Part shown: positions 33,709 through 40,274 of the stretch, piece by piece
Layout of the letters: the number at the start of each line of letters is the position of its first letter
How positions within the stretch are numbered: position 1 is the first letter of the stretch
NCBI RefSeq assembly: GCF_001483135.1
Contig: NZ_LNAL01000008.1
Coordinates: forward strand, 558,001 to 622,000
Direction: 5' to 3'
DNA: 64,000 nt
DNA from: Solirubrum puertoriconensis
GTDB taxonomy: Bacteria; Bacteroidota; Bacteroidia; Cytophagales; Hymenobacteraceae
Position numbers and translations under genes: made by a program
The notes under the pieces: model-generated
What the model was told of the DNA's origin: nothing
The model's database searches: none
What the model saw: the letters and a program-made list of their open reading frames with translations, nothing else

Positions 33709-33732
33709 CGCGGTAAGCACGCCCATAAGAAA

Positions 33733-33787
33733 AGCGGCGCCCTAGGTCTTGGTAGCATAGCGCACTGCCAAGACCTAGGGCGCCGCT
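33733..33787. terminator. 20-bp perfect hairpin between convergent genes
   Basis: Arms 33733-33752 and 33768-33787 are perfectly complementary over 20 bp with a 15-nt loop, and each contains CCTAGG. It lies between the convergent cysteine desulfurase and exporter genes. No long T-run follows on either side, so termination is likely but not certain. Confidence 0.7.
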
Positions 33788-33802
33788 CGTTTGCACTAGG
33801 AC

Positions 33803-35986
33803 TTACCTGGCTATTGCGGGCACCGATTGCACGGGTAGCGGCATGAGCTGTTGCCAGAGGGCATAGTAAGCCCCTCCCGAACTCAGTAACTCGTCGTGGG
33901 TGCCTTGTTCCAGCAGTTCGCCGGCGCCAAGCACCACAATTTTGTCGGCGTGCATCACGGTGCTGAGGCGGTGAGCAATCAGCAGTACTGTTTTGCCCGC
34001 GTCGCGGAACTGCTGTAAGGTGCGCTGTACGTACTGCTCCGAAATGGTGTCGAGGGCCGAGGTGGCTTCGTCCAGAATCAGGATTTCGGGGTTGCGGTAC
34101 AAGGCACGGGCAATAGCCAACCGCTGCTTCTGGCCACCCGACAAGCCGGCACCCCGTTCGCCCAGCATGGTGCCAAAGCCGTAGGGCAGCTTTTCGATAA
34201 ATTCCAAAATGCCCAGTTGCTGGCAAATCGCAATAATGCGGTGCAAATCGGGCTCGGTTTCGCCCACGGCAATGTTTTCGACGATGCTGCCGCTGAACAA
34301 ATCAATTTGCTGCGGCACCACGCTTACCACGCGGCGCAGGCTTTCGGGCTGCAAATGCCGGATATCGAGCCCGCCTATGATGATACTGCCGCCGTTGAGC
34401 GGATACAAGCCCTGTAGCAACGACAGCAGCGTGGTTTTGCCCGAGCCGCTTTCGCCCACAATGCCCGTAATGGCACCCTTTGGAATGTGCAACGACAAGC
34501 TGCGGAACACGGTTCCGCGCGTGTTGTAAGCAAAGGCTACCTCGCGCAGCTGAATGTCGCCGGTGAGTTTGGGCGTGAGTTCGGCCTTGTTCTCGTGCGA
34601 TTCGCGCTCTAGGTCGATAATTTCGAAAAGACGGTCGGCAGCAATCAGAGCATCCTGCACGGTGCGGTTGGCGCCGATGAGGCTGGTAGCTGGTCCCGTG
34701 AAGTACCCGATTACGGCGTAGAACGACAGCAGCTCGCCGGGCGTCAGCTCGTGGTCGAGCACGTAGTACGAGCCCACCCACAGCAGCCCAATGCGGAACA
34801 GCTGCGATACAAACTCAGCGGCCGAGCCGCCTACAATGCCGTGCTTGCCCGAAAAATACACCGTGCGCAGCAGGGCAATAAAGCGATTCTCGGTTCGCTC
34901 GCTGGCAAAGCCCTCCATACCAAAGCGCTTGATGGTGCCCATGGCCGTAATCGACTCCACCAGCTGCGACTCCAACTCGGCGCTTTGCTCCATCAGCTGG
35001 CGCTGGTAACGGCGGTTCAGGCGGTTTTGCAGCCAGTAAATGCCACCGTACAGCGGCAAGATGCCCAGCATCAGCACGGCCAGCTTCCAATCATAGGTGA
35101 ACATCAGCCCGAACGAGAACACCACGATGAAGATGTTCACCAGCAGACCTAGGGCCGTGTCGTTCACGAAGGCCCGGATCTTCACCGCATCGTTCACGCG
35201 CGAAATGATTTCGCCCACCCGCATCGTATCGAAGAAGGTTTGCGGCAACTTCAGCAGGTGGTTGTAGTACCCCAGAATCAGCCGGGCGTCAATCTGCTGC
35301 CCGGTTTGCAGGGCCAACAGGCTTTTCATGCCGCCGATAAACGTCTGGAACAGCAGCAACAGCAGCATGCCCACGCTCAGCAGGTTCAGCAGGTTGCGGT
35401 TGCCATCCACTAGCACATGGTCGACGATTTTCTGCACGTACACCGACATGGATAAGCCCAGCACTGTGTACACTGCTGCTCCAAACAGCGCCTGCACCAT
35501 CACGGAGCGGTGCGGCCGAATCAGCTGCCAAAACCGACCTAGGACAGATACCTTATGGTCGCCGGGCTGAAAGGAGGTATCCGGCGCCAGCAACAGCAAT
35601 ACGCCCGTCCATTGCTCCTGAAATTTGGCCAGCGCCACGCGGTGCAACTGCCCGTCGGCGGGGTCCATGTACACCACGTGCTTTTTCGTGACGCGGTACA
35701 CTACCACGTAGTGGTGCAGTTGGTTGGCCAGCACCACGTGCGCCACGGCTGGCAGCGGTATTTTGGTTAGGCTCTCGAGGGTGCCTTTTACGCCTTTGGC
35801 CTGAAACCCTAGGTGGTTGGCAGCCTTAATCATGCCCACCAGGTTGGTGCCGCGCTGGTCGGTAGTGGCGTACTGCCGAATACGTGCTACCGGCAGCAGC
35901 AGTTTATAGTGCGCGGCCACGGAGGCCAGGCACGCCGCCCCGCAATCCGTAATGTCGCGCTGCCGAATTTTAACAGCCTTACGCAT
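33803..35986 (-). CDS. Peptidase-containing ABC transporter (C39 peptidase, PCAT)
   Basis: A 727-residue bacteriocin-type exporter that cleaves double-glycine leaders and exports the core peptide. Residues 1-130 are a C39 cysteine protease domain: Cys15 in RQRDITDCGAACLASV, the catalytic His in LHHYVVVYR (about residue 92) and Asp in MDPADG (about 108). Six predicted membrane helices follow (about 150-430), then a nucleotide-binding domain with Walker A GESGSGKTT, signature LSGGQKQR, and Walker B ILILDEATSALD. An upstream ATG at 36004 would add six residues. The genes for leader peptides lie 1.4-3.7 kb upstream on the same strand, with HlyD between; the full catalytic triad suggests active leader cleavage. 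Confidence 0.94.
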   Translation of the reverse strand: MRKAVKIRQRDITDCGAACLASVAAHYKLLLPVARIRQYATTDQRGTNLVGMIKAANHLGFQAKGVKGTLESLTKIPLPAVAHVVLANQLHHYVVVYRVTKKHVVYMDPADGQLHRVALAKFQEQWTGVLLLLAPDTSFQPGDHKVSVLGRFWQLIRPHRSVMVQALFGAAVYTVLGLSMSVYVQKIVDHVLVDGNRNLLNLLSVGMLLLLLFQTFIGGMKSLLALQTGQQIDARLILGYYNHLLKLPQTFFDTMRVGEIISRVNDAVKIRAFVNDTALGLLVNIFIVVFSFGLMFTYDWKLAVLMLGILPLYGGIYWLQNRLNRRYQRQLMEQSAELESQLVESITAMGTIKRFGMEGFASERTENRFIALLRTVYFSGKHGIVGGSAAEFVSQLFRIGLLWVGSYYVLDHELTPGELLSFYAVIGYFTGPATSLIGANRTVQDALIAADRLFEIIDLERESHENKAELTPKLTGDIQLREVAFAYNTRGTVFRSLSLHIPKGAITGIVGESGSGKTTLLSLLQGLYPLNGGSIIIGGLDIRHLQPESLRRVVSVVPQQIDLFSGSIVENIAVGETEPDLHRIIAICQQLGILEFIEKLPYGFGTMLGERGAGLSGGQKQRLAIARALYRNPEILILDEATSALDTISEQYVQRTLQQFRDAGKTVLLIAHRLSTVMHADKIVVLGAGELLEQGTHDELLSSGGAYYALWQQLMPLPVQSVPAIAR

Positions 35987-36065
35987 AAAATGAGTTGGGG
36001 CCACTGCTGAAGAGGATACCCCGCAAGCCTACTAGGTGGTGAATGGGCAAAGGCAGGTGCTGCAC

Positions 36066-37217
36066 CTAGGCCGCACCATTTTGAGTTGGGTTAAACCAGT
36101 TATCGGCTTTGTCGAAGAGCAACTGCCACAGCGTGCGTCGGGCCAGCAAAAAGCGCCCGCGCACCGTCATGCCCTTGCGCAGCGAGCCGCGGTAGCCGTT
36201 TTGCAGCTCCAGGTATGGGCGCTGCAGGCGGCAGCGCACCTTAAATACCGGTTGCTGTTCGTTCACAAGCACAAAGTCGCGGGCAACGTCGGTTACTTGG
36301 CCTTCCACCAATCCCCACTGGTTGTAGTCGAAGGCGTCAACCTGAAAGCGCACCGGCATGCCCACGTGCATATAGCCTATGTCTTTGGGCGACACGTAGC
36401 ACTCGGCCAGCAGCGCACCATCGGGCGAAATCTGGCCCAGTAGCTCGCCAGCCTGCACGTAGCTGCCCGCGTATTTGCCGGCTATCTGCTGCACGGTGCC
36501 ATTTACCGGCGCAGTTAGGGCAAACAAGCGCTGCTCTTGCTGTAGTTTCTGGCGCTGGCCGCGTAGCTCGGCCAAATCGGCGCGGTGCGTGTTCAGGTCG
36601 GCTTGCCATTGGCTGCGTTGCGTAGCTGCCTGCACGCGTATTTCATCGAGCAGTTTGCGGTAAGCAAAAGCCTTTTCCTCGAGCTCGATGCGGGCAATTA
36701 CCCGCCCCGCGTACAGGCGGCGGTTGGTGGCCAGCTCACGGGCACTTTTGCTTAACTGATTGCGCAGCAACTGCTGTTGGTAGCTGAATTGCGCCGCTTG
36801 CTGCCCGTAAAGCTGCGTACGCAGCCCGCCCGCGGGCGCAGCCATGCCACGCACCAGCACTTCCAGGTCTTGTACAAACGCTTCCTTTTCGGTCTGCTGG
36901 CGCTGGTTCAGGTCGAGATGGGCCTGCATGGCCGCCGATTGCAGAACCAGCAGCGTATCGCCCTTGCGCACGGCTTGGTTTTCGCGCACGTACTGGCGCG
37001 TAATCGTGCCGGCAACCAACGGGCGTATTTCCGTTTTCTCGGCTAAGGGGCGCAGCGTACCGCTTGCCTGCGTCGATACATTAAGGCTGACCAGTGGCAA
37101 GGCCACTGCCGCACCCAGCAGCGCCACCAACGAGCACAGGTATATGGCCCGGTTGGTGCGGCTGAACTGGTGCAGGTATTCCATAGCAAAATCCGACCTG
37201 TGTTCCGAATTGCTCAT
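36066..37217 (-). CDS. HlyD-family membrane fusion protein
   Basis: A 383-residue periplasmic adaptor partner of the exporter. One membrane helix lies near residues 27-47 (AIYLCSLVALLGAAVALPLV). Then come a lipoyl-like half motif (IRPLVAGTITRQYVRENQAVRKGDTLLVL), a long coiled coil (about 100-235), the second lipoyl half (ALTAPVNGTVQQIAGKYAGSYVQAGELLGQI), and a beta-barrel tail. Links the inner-membrane PCAT to an outer-membrane channel, probably TolC-like, which is not in the window. It starts 79 nt before the PCAT gene; an intrinsic terminator precedes it. Confidence 0.92.
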   Translation of the reverse strand: MSNSEHRSDFAMEYLHQFSRTNRAIYLCSLVALLGAAVALPLVSLNVSTQASGTLRPLAEKTEIRPLVAGTITRQYVRENQAVRKGDTLLVLQSAAMQAHLDLNQRQQTEKEAFVQDLEVLVRGMAAPAGGLRTQLYGQQAAQFSYQQQLLRNQLSKSARELATNRRLYAGRVIARIELEEKAFAYRKLLDEIRVQAATQRSQWQADLNTHRADLAELRGQRQKLQQEQRLFALTAPVNGTVQQIAGKYAGSYVQAGELLGQISPDGALLAECYVSPKDIGYMHVGMPVRFQVDAFDYNQWGLVEGQVTDVARDFVLVNEQQPVFKVRCRLQRPYLELQNGYRGSLRKGMTVRGRFLLARRTLWQLLFDKADNWFNPTQNGAA

Positions 37218-37234
37218 GCTAAGTCGCTATTGCT

Positions 37235-37281
37235 GAAAAAAGATTATGCTTCCGCAACGGAAACCATCGCGGAAGCATAAT
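37235..37281 (-). terminator. Intrinsic terminator or attenuator between the peptide genes and hlyD
   Basis: A 12-13-bp stem (arms about 37243-37255 and 37269-37281) with a 13-nt loop is followed on the minus strand by a run of T (complement of 37235-37241). It lies downstream of the short peptide genes and upstream of hlyD, so peptide mRNA would exceed exporter mRNA, as is common for bacteriocin loci. Confidence 0.8.
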
Positions 37282-37385
37282 TACGCGCATTGCAATTGTT
37301 TTACGCAAGTGTGTGCCATGGTGCAACTAGTTGCGCCTGAATACCTGCATAAGATTGCAATGTTTATTTAGATGAAAGCTATGTA

Positions 37386-37532
37386 TTAATGTGTTATATA
37401 ATAAATAGTCTCACCTACGGCTTTGCCAAAACGATAAATGAAATAAGCGGCTACCAGAAACAACAGCGGTTGAAAACGTTTGTCGTGCAATGCCGTTTCT
37501 GCGAACTCACAAATTGCTTCTTTCAGAGCCAT
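37386..37532 (-). CDS. 48-residue small protein related to the upstream bacteriocin-like core (peptide 5)
   Basis: A 48-codon ORF starting 6 nt after the stop of peptide 4, with stop TAA at 37386-37388. It begins MALKEAICEFAETALHDKRF, has a hydrophobic middle (PLLFLVAAYFIYRF), and ends GKAVGETIYYITH, which closely matches the C-terminal GKAVGEFIYHAT of peptide 4. An 18-nt stretch (tcacctacggctttgcca) is identical at 37411-37428 and 37570-37587. It has no double-glycine leader. It contains GxxxG (GKAVG) but no export leader, so an immunity protein that mimics the peptide, or a leaderless peptide, are the two options. The gene lies in the same run as peptides 3 and 4. Confidence 0.75.
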   Translation of the reverse strand: MALKEAICEFAETALHDKRFQPLLFLVAAYFIYRFGKAVGETIYYITH

Positions 37533-37538
37533 ACCTAT

Positions 37539-37733
37539 TTACTTTCTATTCGTTGCGTGGTAAATGAATTCACCTACGGCTTTGCCAGCTTCGTAGATGG
37601 CTACGCCAGCAGCAGCAGCAGCACCAATGGCCAGGAAGGGCGCCAGAAAGGCACCACCTTCGGTTTCCAGGATTTCTTCTTCCGACAGTTCAACCGTGCT
37701 GAAGTCGGCGGCGGTGAGTAGTTGCAGGCTCAT
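37539..37733 (-). CDS. Double-glycine leader peptide, bacteriocin-like precursor (peptide 4)
   Basis: A 64-residue precursor. The 27-residue leader ends FSTVELSEEEILETEGG, matching the L(S)xxELxxIxGG leader pattern recognised by C39 peptidases. Cleavage after GG would leave a 37-residue core, AFLAPFLAIGAAAAAGVAIY then EAGKAVGEFIYHATNRK: small-residue-rich, hydrophobic with a basic tail, with GxxxG at GKAVG. No Cys or dehydratable cluster, and no modification enzyme is nearby, so an unmodified class II-type peptide is likely. A tandem partner precedes it (peptide 3, 29 nt gap). Confidence 0.86.
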   Translation of the reverse strand: MSLQLLTAADFSTVELSEEEILETEGGAFLAPFLAIGAAAAAGVAIYEAGKAVGEFIYHATNRK

Positions 37734-37762
37734 CTGATGTATCAGCTTGAAGGTGACCTAAA

Positions 37763-37969
37763 TTACTTAGCGGCATCCTGGTAGCCGCTGTACACGCCAG
37801 CAGCAAAAATGCCAGTGGCAGCAAGGCCAGCAGCAGCCCAGCCAGCAGCCTTAGCGGTAATTACATAGCCGCCAATTACGAGCGGGAACAGGCCGCCGTC
37901 TACCATTTCGAGCTCCTGGATGCTCATTTCGGCTACGTTGCAGTTGTTCAGGTCGAGATTCTTGTTCAT
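37763..37969 (-). CDS. Double-glycine leader peptide, bacteriocin-like precursor (peptide 3)
   Basis: A 68-residue precursor. The leader (residues 1-26) ends VAEMSIQELEMVDGG. The 42-residue core starts LFPLVIGGYVITAKAAGW and has spaced glycines (GWAAAG, GLAATG, GIFAAG) plus a GxxxG at GVYSG. This is the pattern of helix-forming two-peptide class IIb bacteriocins, so peptides 3 and 4 may act as a pair (inference). Its only cysteine is in the leader. It is first in the proximal peptide run. Confidence 0.87.
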   Translation of the reverse strand: MNKNLDLNNCNVAEMSIQELEMVDGGLFPLVIGGYVITAKAAGWAAAGLAATGIFAAGVYSGYQDAAK

Positions 37970-38315
37970 CTGAATAAAAGTTCGAAAGGGTTTGTGGAGG
38001 CCTCACCTAGGAGAGGTGAGACGTGGTGAGTAGAACTAACACATTGGTCGCGACCCGAAGCGGTTGTCCTGCTGCAAATAAGCACCCCTTTATCTGCTGT
38101 CATCAATAGTAGTTTCGTATCAATTTTAGTACTTGTTACCATTAAAATCTTTAATGACTAGCTTGATGTATATACATGGTTTGGTTGATTGGTAAAGATA
38201 GCCGTAAACAATCAGGATAAGTTGAAAAAATTGTGTTGAGTTATGGTGTGCTTACATAATTGTTTACTTTCAGTGATTTTGTGCAAAAATTGCATATTTG
38301 ATATTATTTTCATGT
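37970..38315. other. AT-rich leader region upstream of peptide 3, no confident gene
   Basis: 346 bases with no convincing gene. AT-rich beyond 38080. A 7-bp hairpin (ctcacct / aggtgag, 38002-38020) with CCTAGG in its loop region sits 33 bases before the peptide 3 start and could shape the mRNA leader. I see no perfect TAnnTTTG on the minus strand; a promoter must be weaker or lie further up. Confidence 0.5.
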
Positions 38316-39119
38316 TCAATAAATGAGCATGTAACCAATGCCGTTAATGAGCGCGTGGAGTGCAAATCCCCATGCAAATCCCCTGTGTAATCTGATATTA
38401 GCAATAAAAAGTCCCATTGCTATTTGAGGTAGAATATATATCAAGTATATAGGCACTAATTGATATTGTATATTTCGAATGTTAGTTACGTGGATAATGC
38501 CAAACAACAAAGTGTATGCATAAAACCATCTTCTAAAGTGGTGCGTACCTATTTTTAGTAATGATATGTTGTTTATGAATATAGCTAAACATGTAAACGT
38601 GACGAAAGCTATAAGTAAAGGAATTGTGTCGTTTCCTTTGCTAAAATGGAATATTGACCCACCTGAGATAATATAAGTAAATATGGTTGTTGAAGTCGCA
38701 AATGCATATTTATTCAAGTTAAGCGGTAGTCTGAAAATAATTTCTTCTATAAAAGGCGTTGCTAGTACAATGATTATAAAGTTAAACTGATTAAAATCAT
38801 TGCCGGTTTGTAAAATGCTATTACGTATTTGTGTGCTAATAGATTGTATTCCTAGAGTATTTACCAAAAATTTATCAAGAATATTTATAATGATTGATAA
38901 TATAAATACAGCAATAGTGCAAAATAAATATGAAGATAGGGTGTATTTAATATTTGATTTACAGGTGTGCGACTGTTTTGTTAGATAATAAGGTTGGGAG
39001 ATAAATTTTAAGAAATAGTCAAAATCAAAGTTCGACGTATTGCTGACGGTGGGAGTGCCGGGTGCGCTGCTCCTTGGTTTAGCCTCGCTTAAGCTAGTGT
39101 CATGAGTTGTTTGTGGCAT
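38316..39119 (-). CDS. CPBP-family intramembrane metalloprotease (candidate immunity protein)
   Basis: A 267-residue membrane protein of the CPBP/Abi family. Motif 1 is IEEIIFR (Glu125, Glu126, Arg130 of EExxxR), and motif 3 is HALIN (His255, Asn259 of HxxxN); a middle FHFSKG contains the second histidine of the family. About seven helices are predicted. Family members process prenylated proteins, and several serve as immunity to class IIb bacteriocins; the location between two peptide pairs suggests that. Codon use is strongly AT-biased compared with neighbours, arguing for transfer. The N-terminal 30 residues are Ser/Pro/Thr rich and cytosolic. Confidence 0.82.
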   Translation of the reverse strand: MPQTTHDTSLSEAKPRSSAPGTPTVSNTSNFDFDYFLKFISQPYYLTKQSHTCKSNIKYTLSSYLFCTIAVFILSIIINILDKFLVNTLGIQSISTQIRNSILQTGNDFNQFNFIIIVLATPFIEEIIFRLPLNLNKYAFATSTTIFTYIISGGSIFHFSKGNDTIPLLIAFVTFTCLAIFINNISLLKIGTHHFRRWFYAYTLLFGIIHVTNIRNIQYQLVPIYLIYILPQIAMGLFIANIRLHRGFAWGFALHALINGIGYMLIY

Positions 39120-39156
39120 AGGCTGATTGCTGATTGCTAGGACTTTTACAGCAACA

Positions 39157-39194
39157 AAGTCAGCAAGAGGGCTATCTTGCCCTCTTGCTGACTT
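39157..39194 (-). terminator. 16-bp hairpin between peptide 2 and the CPBP gene
   Basis: Arms 39157-39172 and 39179-39194 pair perfectly around a 6-nt loop. On the minus strand a short T-rich stretch follows. It separates the distal peptide genes from the CPBP gene 38 bases further on and may attenuate expression. Confidence 0.65.
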
Positions 39195-39311
39195 AAGACT
39201 ATTATCGGCTAAAGCAACTATGTTGAAGGAGATGTTACGTCCACTACAGTGAAGAATATTTGCGCTTCAGTAGCATAACATTCGCAGTTGTTGATAACGA
39301 TAAGCAGCCAA

Positions 39312-39491
39312 TTAGTGTGTGGCAACCCAGGCGCACACGCCTACAAAGGCGGCTACTTTGCCTACTGCATCAATGGCAAGGCCTATTTGATACCCAACCT
39401 GATAGGCAGTTCCTTCGTGGCCGCCATCAACCAGCATTAGTTCATTACAGCTCAGGGCCACAAGGCCTTGCTCTTCAATATTGAAGTTCAT
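39312..39491 (-). CDS. Double-glycine leader peptide, bacteriocin-like precursor (peptide 2)
   Basis: A 59-codon ORF, easily missed because of its size. The leader (residues 1-24) is MNFNIEEQGLVALSCNELML followed by VDGG. The 35-residue core, HEGTAYQVGYQIGLAIDAVG then KVAAFVGVCAWVATH, has GxxxG at GYQIG and one Cys. It ends ATH, like peptides 1 and 5 (LTH, ITH). It starts 30 nt after the stop of peptide 1, giving a second peptide pair. Same strand and leader class as peptides 3 and 4, so the same PCAT likely exports it. Confidence 0.83.
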   Translation of the reverse strand: MNFNIEEQGLVALSCNELMLVDGGHEGTAYQVGYQIGLAIDAVGKVAAFVGVCAWVATH

Positions 39492-39521
39492 ATGATTTCG
39501 CTGAAAAAAATGATGAATAGC

Positions 39522-39692
39522 TTAGTGAGTCAGGCCTGCCCACAGGCCGATGAAAAAATCACCAATGGCATGGATGTCAACTTGAGACTCGCCGCGATGA
39601 TACATTACATTAACAGTGTCGCCACCGTCGATAGAGATGAGCTCTTCGTTAGTGAGCAAATCAAGTGATTTTATTTCCGAAAAGTTGTTCAT
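39522..39692 (-). CDS. Double-glycine leader peptide, bacteriocin-like precursor (peptide 1)
   Basis: A 56-codon ORF. The leader is MNNFSEIKSLDLLTNEELIS followed by IDGG (24 residues), again close to the xLxxEELxxIxGG pattern. The 32-residue core starts DTVNVMYHRGESQVDIHAIG and ends DFFIGLWAGLTH, with GxxxG at GLWAG. It is more polar at its N-terminus than the others. It follows the LuxR-type gene by 130 nt and is first in the distal peptide run. The plus-strand ORF at 39468-39668 is only its antisense shadow. Confidence 0.82.
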   Translation of the reverse strand: MNNFSEIKSLDLLTNEELISIDGGDTVNVMYHRGESQVDIHAIGDFFIGLWAGLTH

Positions 39693-39821
39693 GATATTGT
39701 GATGAAAGGTCTAACTAAACAGGTCCTAAGTCGCGACAAATAGTGCTGTTTGCTGCACAAAGTATTGGGTAATTTATAGCACTATCAATGGTATTAATCT
39801 ATCAAAATGCATGTGACTACA

Positions 39822-40274
39822 TTATTGCCGACTAAACGCAAAAGTTAACAATGCATTGCGGCCACGTAAACCCAACTTTTCGCGCATGCGGGCACAGTGA
39901 TTATTAACAGTAGTTGGGCTTATAAATAGCTCTTCGGCAACCTGTTGCTGAGTATAGCCTTTGGCCAACAAGCGTAAAACTTCTAGCTCGCGTGTGCTGA
40001 GTACTTCCGGACCCGATTGTGACTGAGCTTCAAGTTTGCTGGCGCTAGTGCGCTGAGGTTGCTGCAACTGCTGATGCAATTGCGCACCACTGCGCACGAG
40101 GTGGCGCAGCGTGGGCAGTTGTTCGCGAACTAACGTGGGCTCACCCGTGGAGGTGTGCTTGCTTAATAAGCCAATCAGGTGTTGGTCGGTGTGTTGGCTA
40201 AGCGCATGGCAGGTCTCCAGCAGGTGTTGCAGGCTGACGACCTCCGGTGAGGGTTGGTGGTAAACGGTGGACAT
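39822..40274 (-). CDS. LuxR-type HTH regulator without receiver domain
   Basis: A 150-residue protein. Residues about 90-150 form a LuxR/NarL DNA-binding domain: LSTRELEVLRLLAKGYTQQQVAEELFISPTTVNNHCARMREKLGLRGRNALLTFA with the recognition helix near TTVNNHCARM. The first 85 residues are helical and Gln/His/Leu rich with no recognised sensor. It is 130 nt upstream of the peptide genes on the same strand, so it is the likely regulator of the locus, perhaps growth-phase or density responsive (inference). Confidence 0.84.
   Translation of the reverse strand: MSTVYHQPSPEVVSLQHLLETCHALSQHTDQHLIGLLSKHTSTGEPTLVREQLPTLRHLVRSGAQLHQQLQQPQRTSASKLEAQSQSGPEVLSTRELEVLRLLAKGYTQQQVAEELFISPTTVNNHCARMREKLGLRGRNALLTFAFSRQ

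What the first reader, a model, noticed from the sequence alone, without database searches (positions are those of the whole stretch)
33803..40274. Candidate undescribed multi-peptide bacteriocin-like locus with PCAT/HlyD export and CPBP candidate immunity
Seen: on one strand a LuxR-type regulator, four short precursors with double-glycine leaders, a fifth short ORF related to one core, a CPBP protease with EExxxR and HxxxN motifs, an HlyD adaptor, and a C39-peptidase ABC exporter. Known: PCATs cut at GG and export the core; CPBP proteins serve as immunity to some class IIb bacteriocins. Inferred: the locus makes two peptide pairs, plus a small immunity or accessory protein.
Basis: partly seen in the sequence, partly recalled or inferred. 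Interest (0 to 1): 0.92.

Follow-up and report, generated by a model that had tools for sequence, protein, structure and literature searches.

The report
Two-module bacterial peptide-toxin locus
An unnamed bacterium appears to carry two separate pairs of small export-ready peptides, each with its own likely protective gene, and one of those protective genes looks like the tail of the peptide it would guard against.

Summary
The locus is two exchangeable cassettes on one exporter: [P1-P2-CPBP] and [P3-P4-O48], beside LuxR, HlyD and a C39 peptidase ABC exporter (PCAT). At one chromosomal site, G006 (same genus) has only the second, G195 (same family) only a diverged copy of the first, the window both; G163 shows the exporter alone and G005 an O48 relative alone. 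P3-P4-O48 recurs in that order in 4 of 204 family genomes, once 2.86 Mb from its exporter, and is under purifying selection (window against G006).

The 48-residue O48 is the notable part: no credible Pfam or NCBIfam match, and relatives without the toxin genes in 33 of 204 genomes. A profile built without P4 scores P4 cores at 30-33 bits (best shuffle 14.8; P1-P3 0 or less). I infer that O48 is the P3/P4 immunity protein and resembles P4's membrane helix to block it. Toxicity, pairing and immunity are untested. The architecture is that of class IIb bacteriocins and Caulobacter Cdz: a new variant of a known kind.

The parts
39822..40274 (-). LuxR-type (GerE) regulator, 150 aa, only the DNA-binding domain matched
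   Evidence: homologues at the same place in G006 (65%) and G195 (48% over 137 aa); dS 1.3 against 0.19-0.35 for other genes of the site
39522..39692 (-). P1: 24-aa double-glycine leader + 32-aa core (cassette A)
   Evidence: relative in G195 (43% over 54 aa) sharing HAIGDFF.G...GLT
39312..39491 (-). P2: 24-aa double-glycine leader + 35-aa core (cassette A)
   Evidence: relative in G195 (39% over 44 aa)
38316..39119 (-). CPBP-type membrane protein, candidate immunity of cassette A (267 aa, GC 0.33)
   Evidence: relatives directly after GG peptides in G195, L035, L036, L038
37763..37969 (-). P3: 26-aa double-glycine leader + 42-aa A/G-rich core (cassette B)
   Evidence: TIGR03949 29.8 bits, cut-off 21.5; strong matches in 4 of 204 family genomes
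37539..37733 (-). P4: 27-aa double-glycine leader + 37-aa core ending GKAVGEFIYHATNRK (cassette B)
   Evidence: TIGR03949 20.9 bits
37386..37532 (-). O48: 48-aa leaderless small membrane protein, candidate immunity of cassette B, resembling the C-terminal helix of P4
36066..37217 (-). HlyD-type periplasmic adaptor
33803..35986 (-). PCAT: C39 peptidase-ABC exporter (listed ORF runs to 36004; start probably 35986)
39730..39737 (.). palindrome GTCGCGAC, about 38 nt before the P1 start; candidate operator
38047..38054 (.). palindrome GTCGCGAC, about 78 nt before the P3 start; candidate operator

Best explanation
The locus makes two independent class IIb-like (two-peptide) bacteriocins that share one exporter. 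P1 to P4 are made as inactive precursors; the PCAT cuts after the double glycine and exports the cores with HlyD and an outer-membrane channel encoded elsewhere. Cores P1+P2 and P3+P4 insert as helices into the inner membrane of related bacteria and permeabilise it. Each cassette carries its own protection: CPBP for P1/P2 (by proteolysis or receptor shielding) and O48 for P3/P4. O48 sits in the inner membrane and carries nearly the same C-terminal helix as P4 (xxIYxxGKxxGExxYxxT), so it most likely occupies P4's helix-pairing partner (P3, or a shared receptor) and stops assembly of the pore. The LuxR protein probably switches both cassettes on through the GTCGCGAC sites. Shown here: gene content, conservation, cassette independence, purifying selection on P3, P4 and O48, and the O48-P4 resemblance. 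Inferred: export, toxicity, pairing, immunity, the mimicry mechanism and the regulation.
For: Domains and leaders. Independent presence and absence of the two cassettes at one site: window both, G006 only P3-P4-O48, G195 only P1-P2-CPBP (35-43% identical), G163 exporter with no GG ORF seen, G005 an O48 relative alone, and 10 of 28 chosen genomes with the two flanking genes adjacent. P3-P4-O48 order kept in 4 of 4 genomes with a strong P3 match, of 204 searched; all four have the PCAT clade found in 10 of 204, one of them unlinked (G174: exporter at C1:1339124, cassette at C1:4197572). A CPBP directly follows GG peptides in G195, L035, L036 and L038, and a CAAX protease does so on plasmid NC_015168. 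GG-leader ORFs lie near the exporter in 13 of 18 close-PCAT loci inspected; two of the five misses are cut by contig ends. O48 profile on three P4 cores 30.2-32.9 bits, best of 5,933 scored shuffles 14.8, P1-P3 cores 0 bits or less; genome-scan E-values for P4 2.1e-6 (window), 5.7e-7, 8.6e-6, 3.3e-5. Lone O48 genes and the toxin cassette occupy the same place in two lineages: G005 against the window and G006, and the rocD-hemB interval, where G045, G252, G259 and G247 have lone copies and G257 has the cassette plus lone copies. Omega 0.03-0.15 for P3, P4, O48. Helix 21-47 predicted for O48, mean pLDDT 80.6. GTCGCGAC before P1 and P3 in the window, P3 in G006 and P1 in G195.
Against: No activity, transcript or peptide data. 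O48 relatives without the toxin genes (33 of 204 genomes) greatly outnumber strong P3 matches (4 of 204), and 28 of 36 loci compared lie at one of five recurring chromosomal sites, which also fits a resident function unrelated to this toxin. Each mature core has only one GxxxG, and P1 is weakly hydrophobic (best 19-residue mean 0.96). P1 and P2 match no bacteriocin family over a cut-off; TIGR03949 does not reach P3 of G174 at E 0.01. Most close PCATs carry unrelated cores. The CPBP model is poor (mean pLDDT 67.9) and found no fold match; the plasmid's CAAX protease has no blastp match to the window's CPBP. In other systems a CAAX protease was not immunity: SilX serves signal-peptide processing (PMC9298176, abstract read), and the one beside cdz is not part of that system (PMC5380434, passage read). 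GTCGCGAC was chosen after seeing it, and 29 of 100 shuffles of the window have at least two copies.
Confidence: 0.6

Rival explanations
1. O48 is a resident small membrane protein of this bacterial family with its own cellular role, and P4 evolved to imitate it so as to dock on the same membrane partner in target cells. In the cassette, O48 may then be a spare copy that titrates the toxin or replaces the attacked protein.
For: O48 relatives without the toxin genes in 33 of 204 family genomes, mostly at recurring sites; of 12 lone-gene pairs compared, 9 have omega 0.06-0.28, one 0.51 and two are saturated. Outside the family matches are rare: 3 of 395 genomes drawn across the phylum, the window's own included.
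Against: About one fifth of family genomes match, patchy for a core function (a lower bound, as the scan scores only its best candidates); several loci have tandem divergent copies, as immunity arrays often do (recalled); O48 stays directly downstream of P4 in all four P3 genomes.
Confidence: 0.2
2. The four peptides are signals (ComC/BlpC-like pheromones) or surface peptides rather than toxins, exported by the PCAT and sensed through the LuxR protein.
For: A regulator lies in the cluster; P1 has a weak ComC match (E 0.3); a CAAX protease is known in signal-peptide processing (PMC9298176, abstract read).
Against: No histidine kinase or sensor domain among the nine cluster proteins; four different cores instead of one; A/G-rich P3 and P4 cores, with P3 over a class IIb bacteriocin cut-off.
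Confidence: 0.1
3. P1 to P4 act together as one four-component toxin, or each alone, and CPBP and O48 are shared accessories.
For: One strand, one exporter and one regulator in the window; relatives' loci hold from one to several GG peptides.
Against: The two cassettes are found apart in G006 and G195; P3-P4-O48 stands far from its exporter in G174.
Confidence: 0.1

Closest known systems
Class IIb two-peptide bacteriocins (model TIGR03949; plantaricin EF/JK with Abi/CPBP immunity)
   Same: Adjacent pairs of GG-leader peptides with one GxxxG in each core, PCAT plus accessory protein, membrane immunity genes, CPBP/Abi proteins among them (review PMC8538875, passages read)
   Different: Exporter with an HlyD adaptor, as in Gram-negatives; two cassettes on one exporter; an immunity candidate that resembles one of its own toxin peptides, for which I found no precedent in the searches named in Tried and rejected
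Cdz system of Caulobacter crescentus (CdzC, CdzD, CdzI, CdzAB; PMC5380434, passages read)
   Same: Two small leader peptides rich in glycine and small residues, type I exporter, small inner-membrane immunity protein in the same operon
   Different: Cores here have a single GxxxG, not an extended glycine zipper; contact dependence unknown; the passages read do not describe CdzI as resembling CdzC or CdzD
Bacteroidetocins (PMC6671954, passages read)
   Same: Bacteroidota (the window's phylum is inferred), GG leader, PCAT
   Different: Bacteroidetocins have at least two cysteines, a multi-TM protein and mostly a thiol oxidoreductase, and no immunity protein was found; here three of four cores have no cysteine, one has one, and no oxidoreductase is among the nine cluster proteins
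GG-peptide/CAAX/HlyD/PCAT cluster on Phocaeicola salanitronis plasmid NC_015168
   Same: Two GG peptides directly before a CAAX protease, then HlyD and a PCAT 57.9% identical to the window's
   Different: Different cores by eye, a CAAX protease without blastp match to the window's CPBP, TolC in the cluster, no O48-type gene annotated

Membership tests
PCAT (C39 peptidase-containing ABC exporter) | N-terminal C39 peptidase, ABC membrane and ATPase domains in one chain | tested here: met
   TIGR01193 517.5 bits against cut-off 523.85, just under
Class IIb two-peptide bacteriocin | two adjacent GG-leader genes conserved as a pair | tested here: met
   P3-P4 in 4 of 4 genomes with strong P3; P1-P2 in the window and, diverged, in G195
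Class IIb two-peptide bacteriocin | GxxxG in each mature peptide | tested here: met
   one in each of P1-P4; weak evidence in A/G-rich cores
Class IIb two-peptide bacteriocin | both peptides needed for full antimicrobial activity | not testable with these tools
   needs synthetic peptides
TIGR03949 lactobin A/cerein 7B family | score over the curated cut-off 21.5 | tested here: inconclusive
   P3 29.8 met; P4 20.9 just below in the window, 22.8 over it in G006; P1 11.3, P2 no hit
CPBP/Abi bacteriocin immunity | conserved EE, FxxxH and HxxxN membrane motifs | tested here: met
   E125, E126, F206, H210, H255, N259 invariant in five sequences, window included; profile score below the Pfam cut-off
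CPBP/Abi bacteriocin immunity | Rce1-like fold | tested here: inconclusive
   poor model, no match with E <= 0.001
CPBP/Abi bacteriocin immunity | protects against the cognate bacteriocin | not testable with these tools
   linkage to GG peptides only
Cdz | extended GxxxGxxxG glycine zipper in the toxins | tested here: not met
   only one GxxxG per core
Cdz | small transmembrane immunity gene after the two toxin genes | tested here: inconclusive
   O48 directly after P4 in four loci, helix 21-47 predicted; membrane location and immunity untested
Bacteroidetocins | at least two cysteines in the peptide; thiol oxidoreductase in most loci | tested here: not met
   P1, P3, P4 cores have none and P2 one cysteine; no oxidoreductase among the nine proteins scanned

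The most novel reading that the evidence does not exclude
O48 is an immunity protein that works by molecular mimicry: a membrane-anchored copy of the toxin peptide's own C-terminal helix that takes the place of P4 in the pore or on its receptor. Such copies are kept as lone chromosomal immunity genes across a bacterial family, in species that do not make the toxin.
Probability: 0.3. Interest if true: 0.8.

Novelty: new variant of a known kind. Interest (0 to 1): 0.58.

Why it matters
How immunity to two-peptide bacteriocins works is described as unknown (PMC8538875, passage read) and 'a mystery' (PMC6957408, passage read). A protective protein that carries its toxin's own helix would give a direct, testable mechanism. 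The natural separation of the two cassettes in related species suggests ready-made producer, immune and sensitive strains, and a family of lone O48 relatives predicts which bacteria resist.

Tried and rejected
O48 as a fifth exported peptide: rejected; it has no GG leader, and its N-terminus varies in length and sequence between relatives (by inspection; no signal-peptide program was run). CPBP as a general immunity for the whole locus: not favoured, since P3-P4-O48 occurs without a CPBP beside it in G006, G257 and G174. Genome-wide, CPBP was sought in 15 genomes only, G174 and G195 not among them: none at E 1e-4 in G006, and two 26-28% matches elsewhere in G257. P3-like partner in the Sec/SdpB-like loci: rejected, 1.2 and 4.5 bits, below the best shuffles. 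P4 relatives in viral contigs: 98 pattern matches, none confirmed. O48 and P3 on plasmids: no match. Solved structures for the O48 profile: none. CPBP structure: model too poor. PADLOC: nothing for CPBP or O48. Naming the organism: not achieved; family and genus labels are the tool's, and 'Hymenobacteraceae-like Cytophagales' is my inference (a plasmid search with neighbouring DNA gave nothing).

Limits. The genome search scores only its best candidates, so counts are lower bounds. The O48 model A1 was built from ten sequences that the later scans include. The 33 lone-O48 genomes include some with only the more divergent second type (GExVGxxxGxxIYNxTH). In one search shuffles break helix periodicity; the P3 core, similarly A/G-rich, scoring 0 is the better control; G006's P4 was not in that control; a G176 peptide core scored 10.1 bits. 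At E 0.01 the P3 profile matches 9 of 204 genomes; I count only the four below 1e-30, the other five being 8.5e-5 or weaker. TIGR03949 matches 8 of 204, 5 over its cut-off. In A4 the G257 row starts one codon before its ATG. The 28 genomes were chosen by me (7 of the same genus, 21 of another): 10 have the flanking genes within about 325 bp, G005 has O48 only, G006 is filled, G180 has an unexamined gap of about 1.3 kb and 15 are unresolved. GG ORFs were found by a pattern search and by eye.

'No precedent found' rests on paper searches (listings seen; abstract or passages of five papers read, none whole). The library holds only open-licence PMC papers.
Full report
What is there. Pfam and NCBIfam support LuxR, HlyD and the C39-peptidase ABC exporter, and P3 passes the curated cut-off for class IIb bacteriocins of the lactobin A/cerein 7B family; P4 misses by 0.6 bits. 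Four of 366 short ORFs in the window match a strict double-glycine leader pattern, and they are P1 to P4 (the pattern was written after the fact). The CPBP gene is poor in G+C (0.33 against 0.57 for the window). Its motif residues are invariant in five sequences, the window's and four relatives', except the arginine, lost in one.

Two cassettes, not one cluster. The exporter has close relatives (56% identity or more) in 8 of 148 related genomes, the window's own included, and, with a cut at E 1e-140, in 10 of 204 genomes of the family, again with its own. At the chromosomal site of the window, between a cysteine desulfurase and a protein beginning MAEINIQRKK, species differ by whole cassettes. 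The window has LuxR-[P1-P2-CPBP]-[P3-P4-O48]-HlyD-PCAT. G006, of the same genus, has LuxR-[P3-P4-O48]-HlyD-PCAT. G195, of another genus, has LuxR-[P1-P2-CPBP]-HlyD-PCAT with peptides 39-43% and CPBP 35% identical, and it is not among the genomes with a P3 or O48 match. G163 has HlyD-PCAT with no GG ORF seen. G005 has an O48 relative alone. Ten of 28 genomes checked have the two flanking genes adjacent. No CPBP relative was found in G006 at E 1e-4.

P3-P4-O48 in this order is found in all 4 genomes with a strong P3 match of 204 searched. In G174 it stands 2.86 Mb from the exporter on the contig, and the exporter locus there has no peptides beside it. Between the window and G006, P3, P4, O48, HlyD and PCAT have dS 0.19-0.35 and omega 0.03-0.15, whereas LuxR has dS 1.3. 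The LuxR side of the locus has therefore probably been exchanged, as the presence or absence of cassette A next to it suggests. P1, P2 and CPBP could be compared only with G195 and are saturated there.

The exporter is not private to these peptides. In 13 of 18 close-PCAT loci inspected there are GG-leader ORFs nearby, mostly with other cores; two of the five misses are cut by contig ends.

The 48-residue ORF. It is a separate family. A ten-sequence profile matches 40 of 204 family genomes at E 0.01. Four of these carry the full P3-P4-O48 cassette, in two (G163, G016) the match is a Sec-type protein instead, and in one (G255) no ORF was recovered. That leaves 33 genomes with a lone relative; none of them is among the ten with this PCAT clade or the four with strong P3. 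Among 36 loci compared, cassette loci included, 28 fall at five recurring sites: metK/recombinase 6, a second site of the same genus 3, SbcC-like 7, a desuccinylase/outer-membrane-protein site 7, rocD/hemB 5; three more share a transporter gene (gene names recalled from sequence). Tandem divergent copies are common. Of 12 lone-gene pairs compared, nine have omega 0.06-0.28, one 0.51, and two are saturated. Across the phylum 3 of 395 sampled genomes match at E 0.001, the window's own included. Of 26 members, two match a Pfam family at best E 0.0086 and one an NCBIfam family at E 0.0015, none convincingly, and no solved structure matches.

Lone O48 genes and the cassette meet at the same places twice. 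G005 has only O48 where the window and G006 have the toxin locus. In the rocD-hemB interval G045, G252, G259 and G247 have only O48-type genes, while G257 has HlyD-PCAT-P3-P4-O48 followed by two more O48-type genes. That ties the lone genes to the toxin locus, though it does not show which came first.

O48 and P4. The profile, built without any P4, finds P4 in all four genomes (E 5.7e-7 to 3.3e-5) and scores three P4 cores at 30-33 bits, against 14.8 for the best of 5,933 scored shuffles and 0 bits or less for P1, P2 and P3. The common part is the last helix, xxIYxxGKxxGExxYxxT. In the window, 18 nucleotides of it are identical between the two genes; in G006 and G174 no stretch of 8 or more is, and G257 shares 9, so the resemblance does not rest on a recent conversion. 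A structure model gives helices 2-16 and 21-47.

How it most likely works. Established for the families: PCATs cut after GG and export (recalled; also stated in PMC6671954, passage read); two-peptide bacteriocins are thought to pair as membrane helices, and their immunity proteins are membrane proteins whose mode of action is unknown (PMC8538875 and PMC6957408, passages read). Abi/CPBP proteins protect against some of them (PMC8538875), but CAAX proteases near other bacteriocin loci had other roles or none (PMC9298176 abstract; PMC5380434 passage). Inference: cassette A is P1+P2 guarded by CPBP, and cassette B is P3+P4 guarded by O48. O48 probably protects by offering P4's own helix to P3 or to the receptor. 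The orphan relatives would be immunity without production. The main rival is that O48 has an older cellular role and P4 imitates it; the orphans' number and fixed sites speak for that.

Regulation. GTCGCGAC occurs twice in 64 kb, about 38 nt before P1 and 78 nt before P3. It is also before P3 in G006 and before P1 in G195, the other two loci with this LuxR gene beside the peptides; its core TCGCGA is absent from the G257 and G174 cassette stretches scanned. G174 does have a LuxR-type match beside its distant exporter. This is suggestive only, since the motif was chosen after seeing it and 29 of 100 shuffles hold two or more copies.

Known or new. The parts and the general plan are known: class IIb clusters, the Cdz system of Caulobacter (PMC5380434, passages read), and a Phocaeicola plasmid with two GG peptides, a CAAX protease, HlyD and PCAT. 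Bacteroidetocins differ in cysteines and partner genes (PMC6671954, passages read). What I did not find described, in the searches named, is a small protective-type gene that shares its toxin's helix, or its lone relatives across a family. I rate it a new variant of a known kind.

Noticed in passing
L166 6211-6528 (G163) and L168 5873-6190 (G016): A Sec-signal-like protein of 105 aa has a core matching P4's C-terminal helix (18.0 and 24.7 bits; best shuffles 12.1 and 10.8) beside a second small Sec-type protein. In L166 DUF5819 and HTTM/SdpB-like genes follow (TIGR04033 E 6.9e-12, 45.6 bits, cut-off 178.4); similar ORFs follow in L168 by eye. A P4-like core may be matured there by an Sdp-like route.
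   Followed up: partly
window 38047-38054 and 39730-39737: Palindrome GTCGCGAC before the first peptide gene of each cassette, also before P3 in G006 and P1 in G195; candidate LuxR operator.
   Followed up: partly
L095 10360-10774, L101, L137, L138, L142, L143, L152, L160: O48 relatives in tandem, of two types (GKxxGE and GExVGxxxGELIYNLTH), possibly two-part or stacked immunity.
   Followed up: no
plasmid hits H6-H15: PCATs 53.5-55.6% identical to the window's on rhizobial-type plasmids; the one region viewed (L223) has HlyD and PCAT but no annotated peptide beside them.
   Followed up: partly
window 33730-33790: Inverted repeat around CCTAGG between the cysteine desulfurase and the exporter, with similar sequence at the same place in G005 and G006; terminator-like.
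   Followed up: no
L065 and L066 (G093): Two copies of the same peptide-HlyD-PCAT locus far apart in one genome, with the same 45-aa peptide.
   Followed up: no
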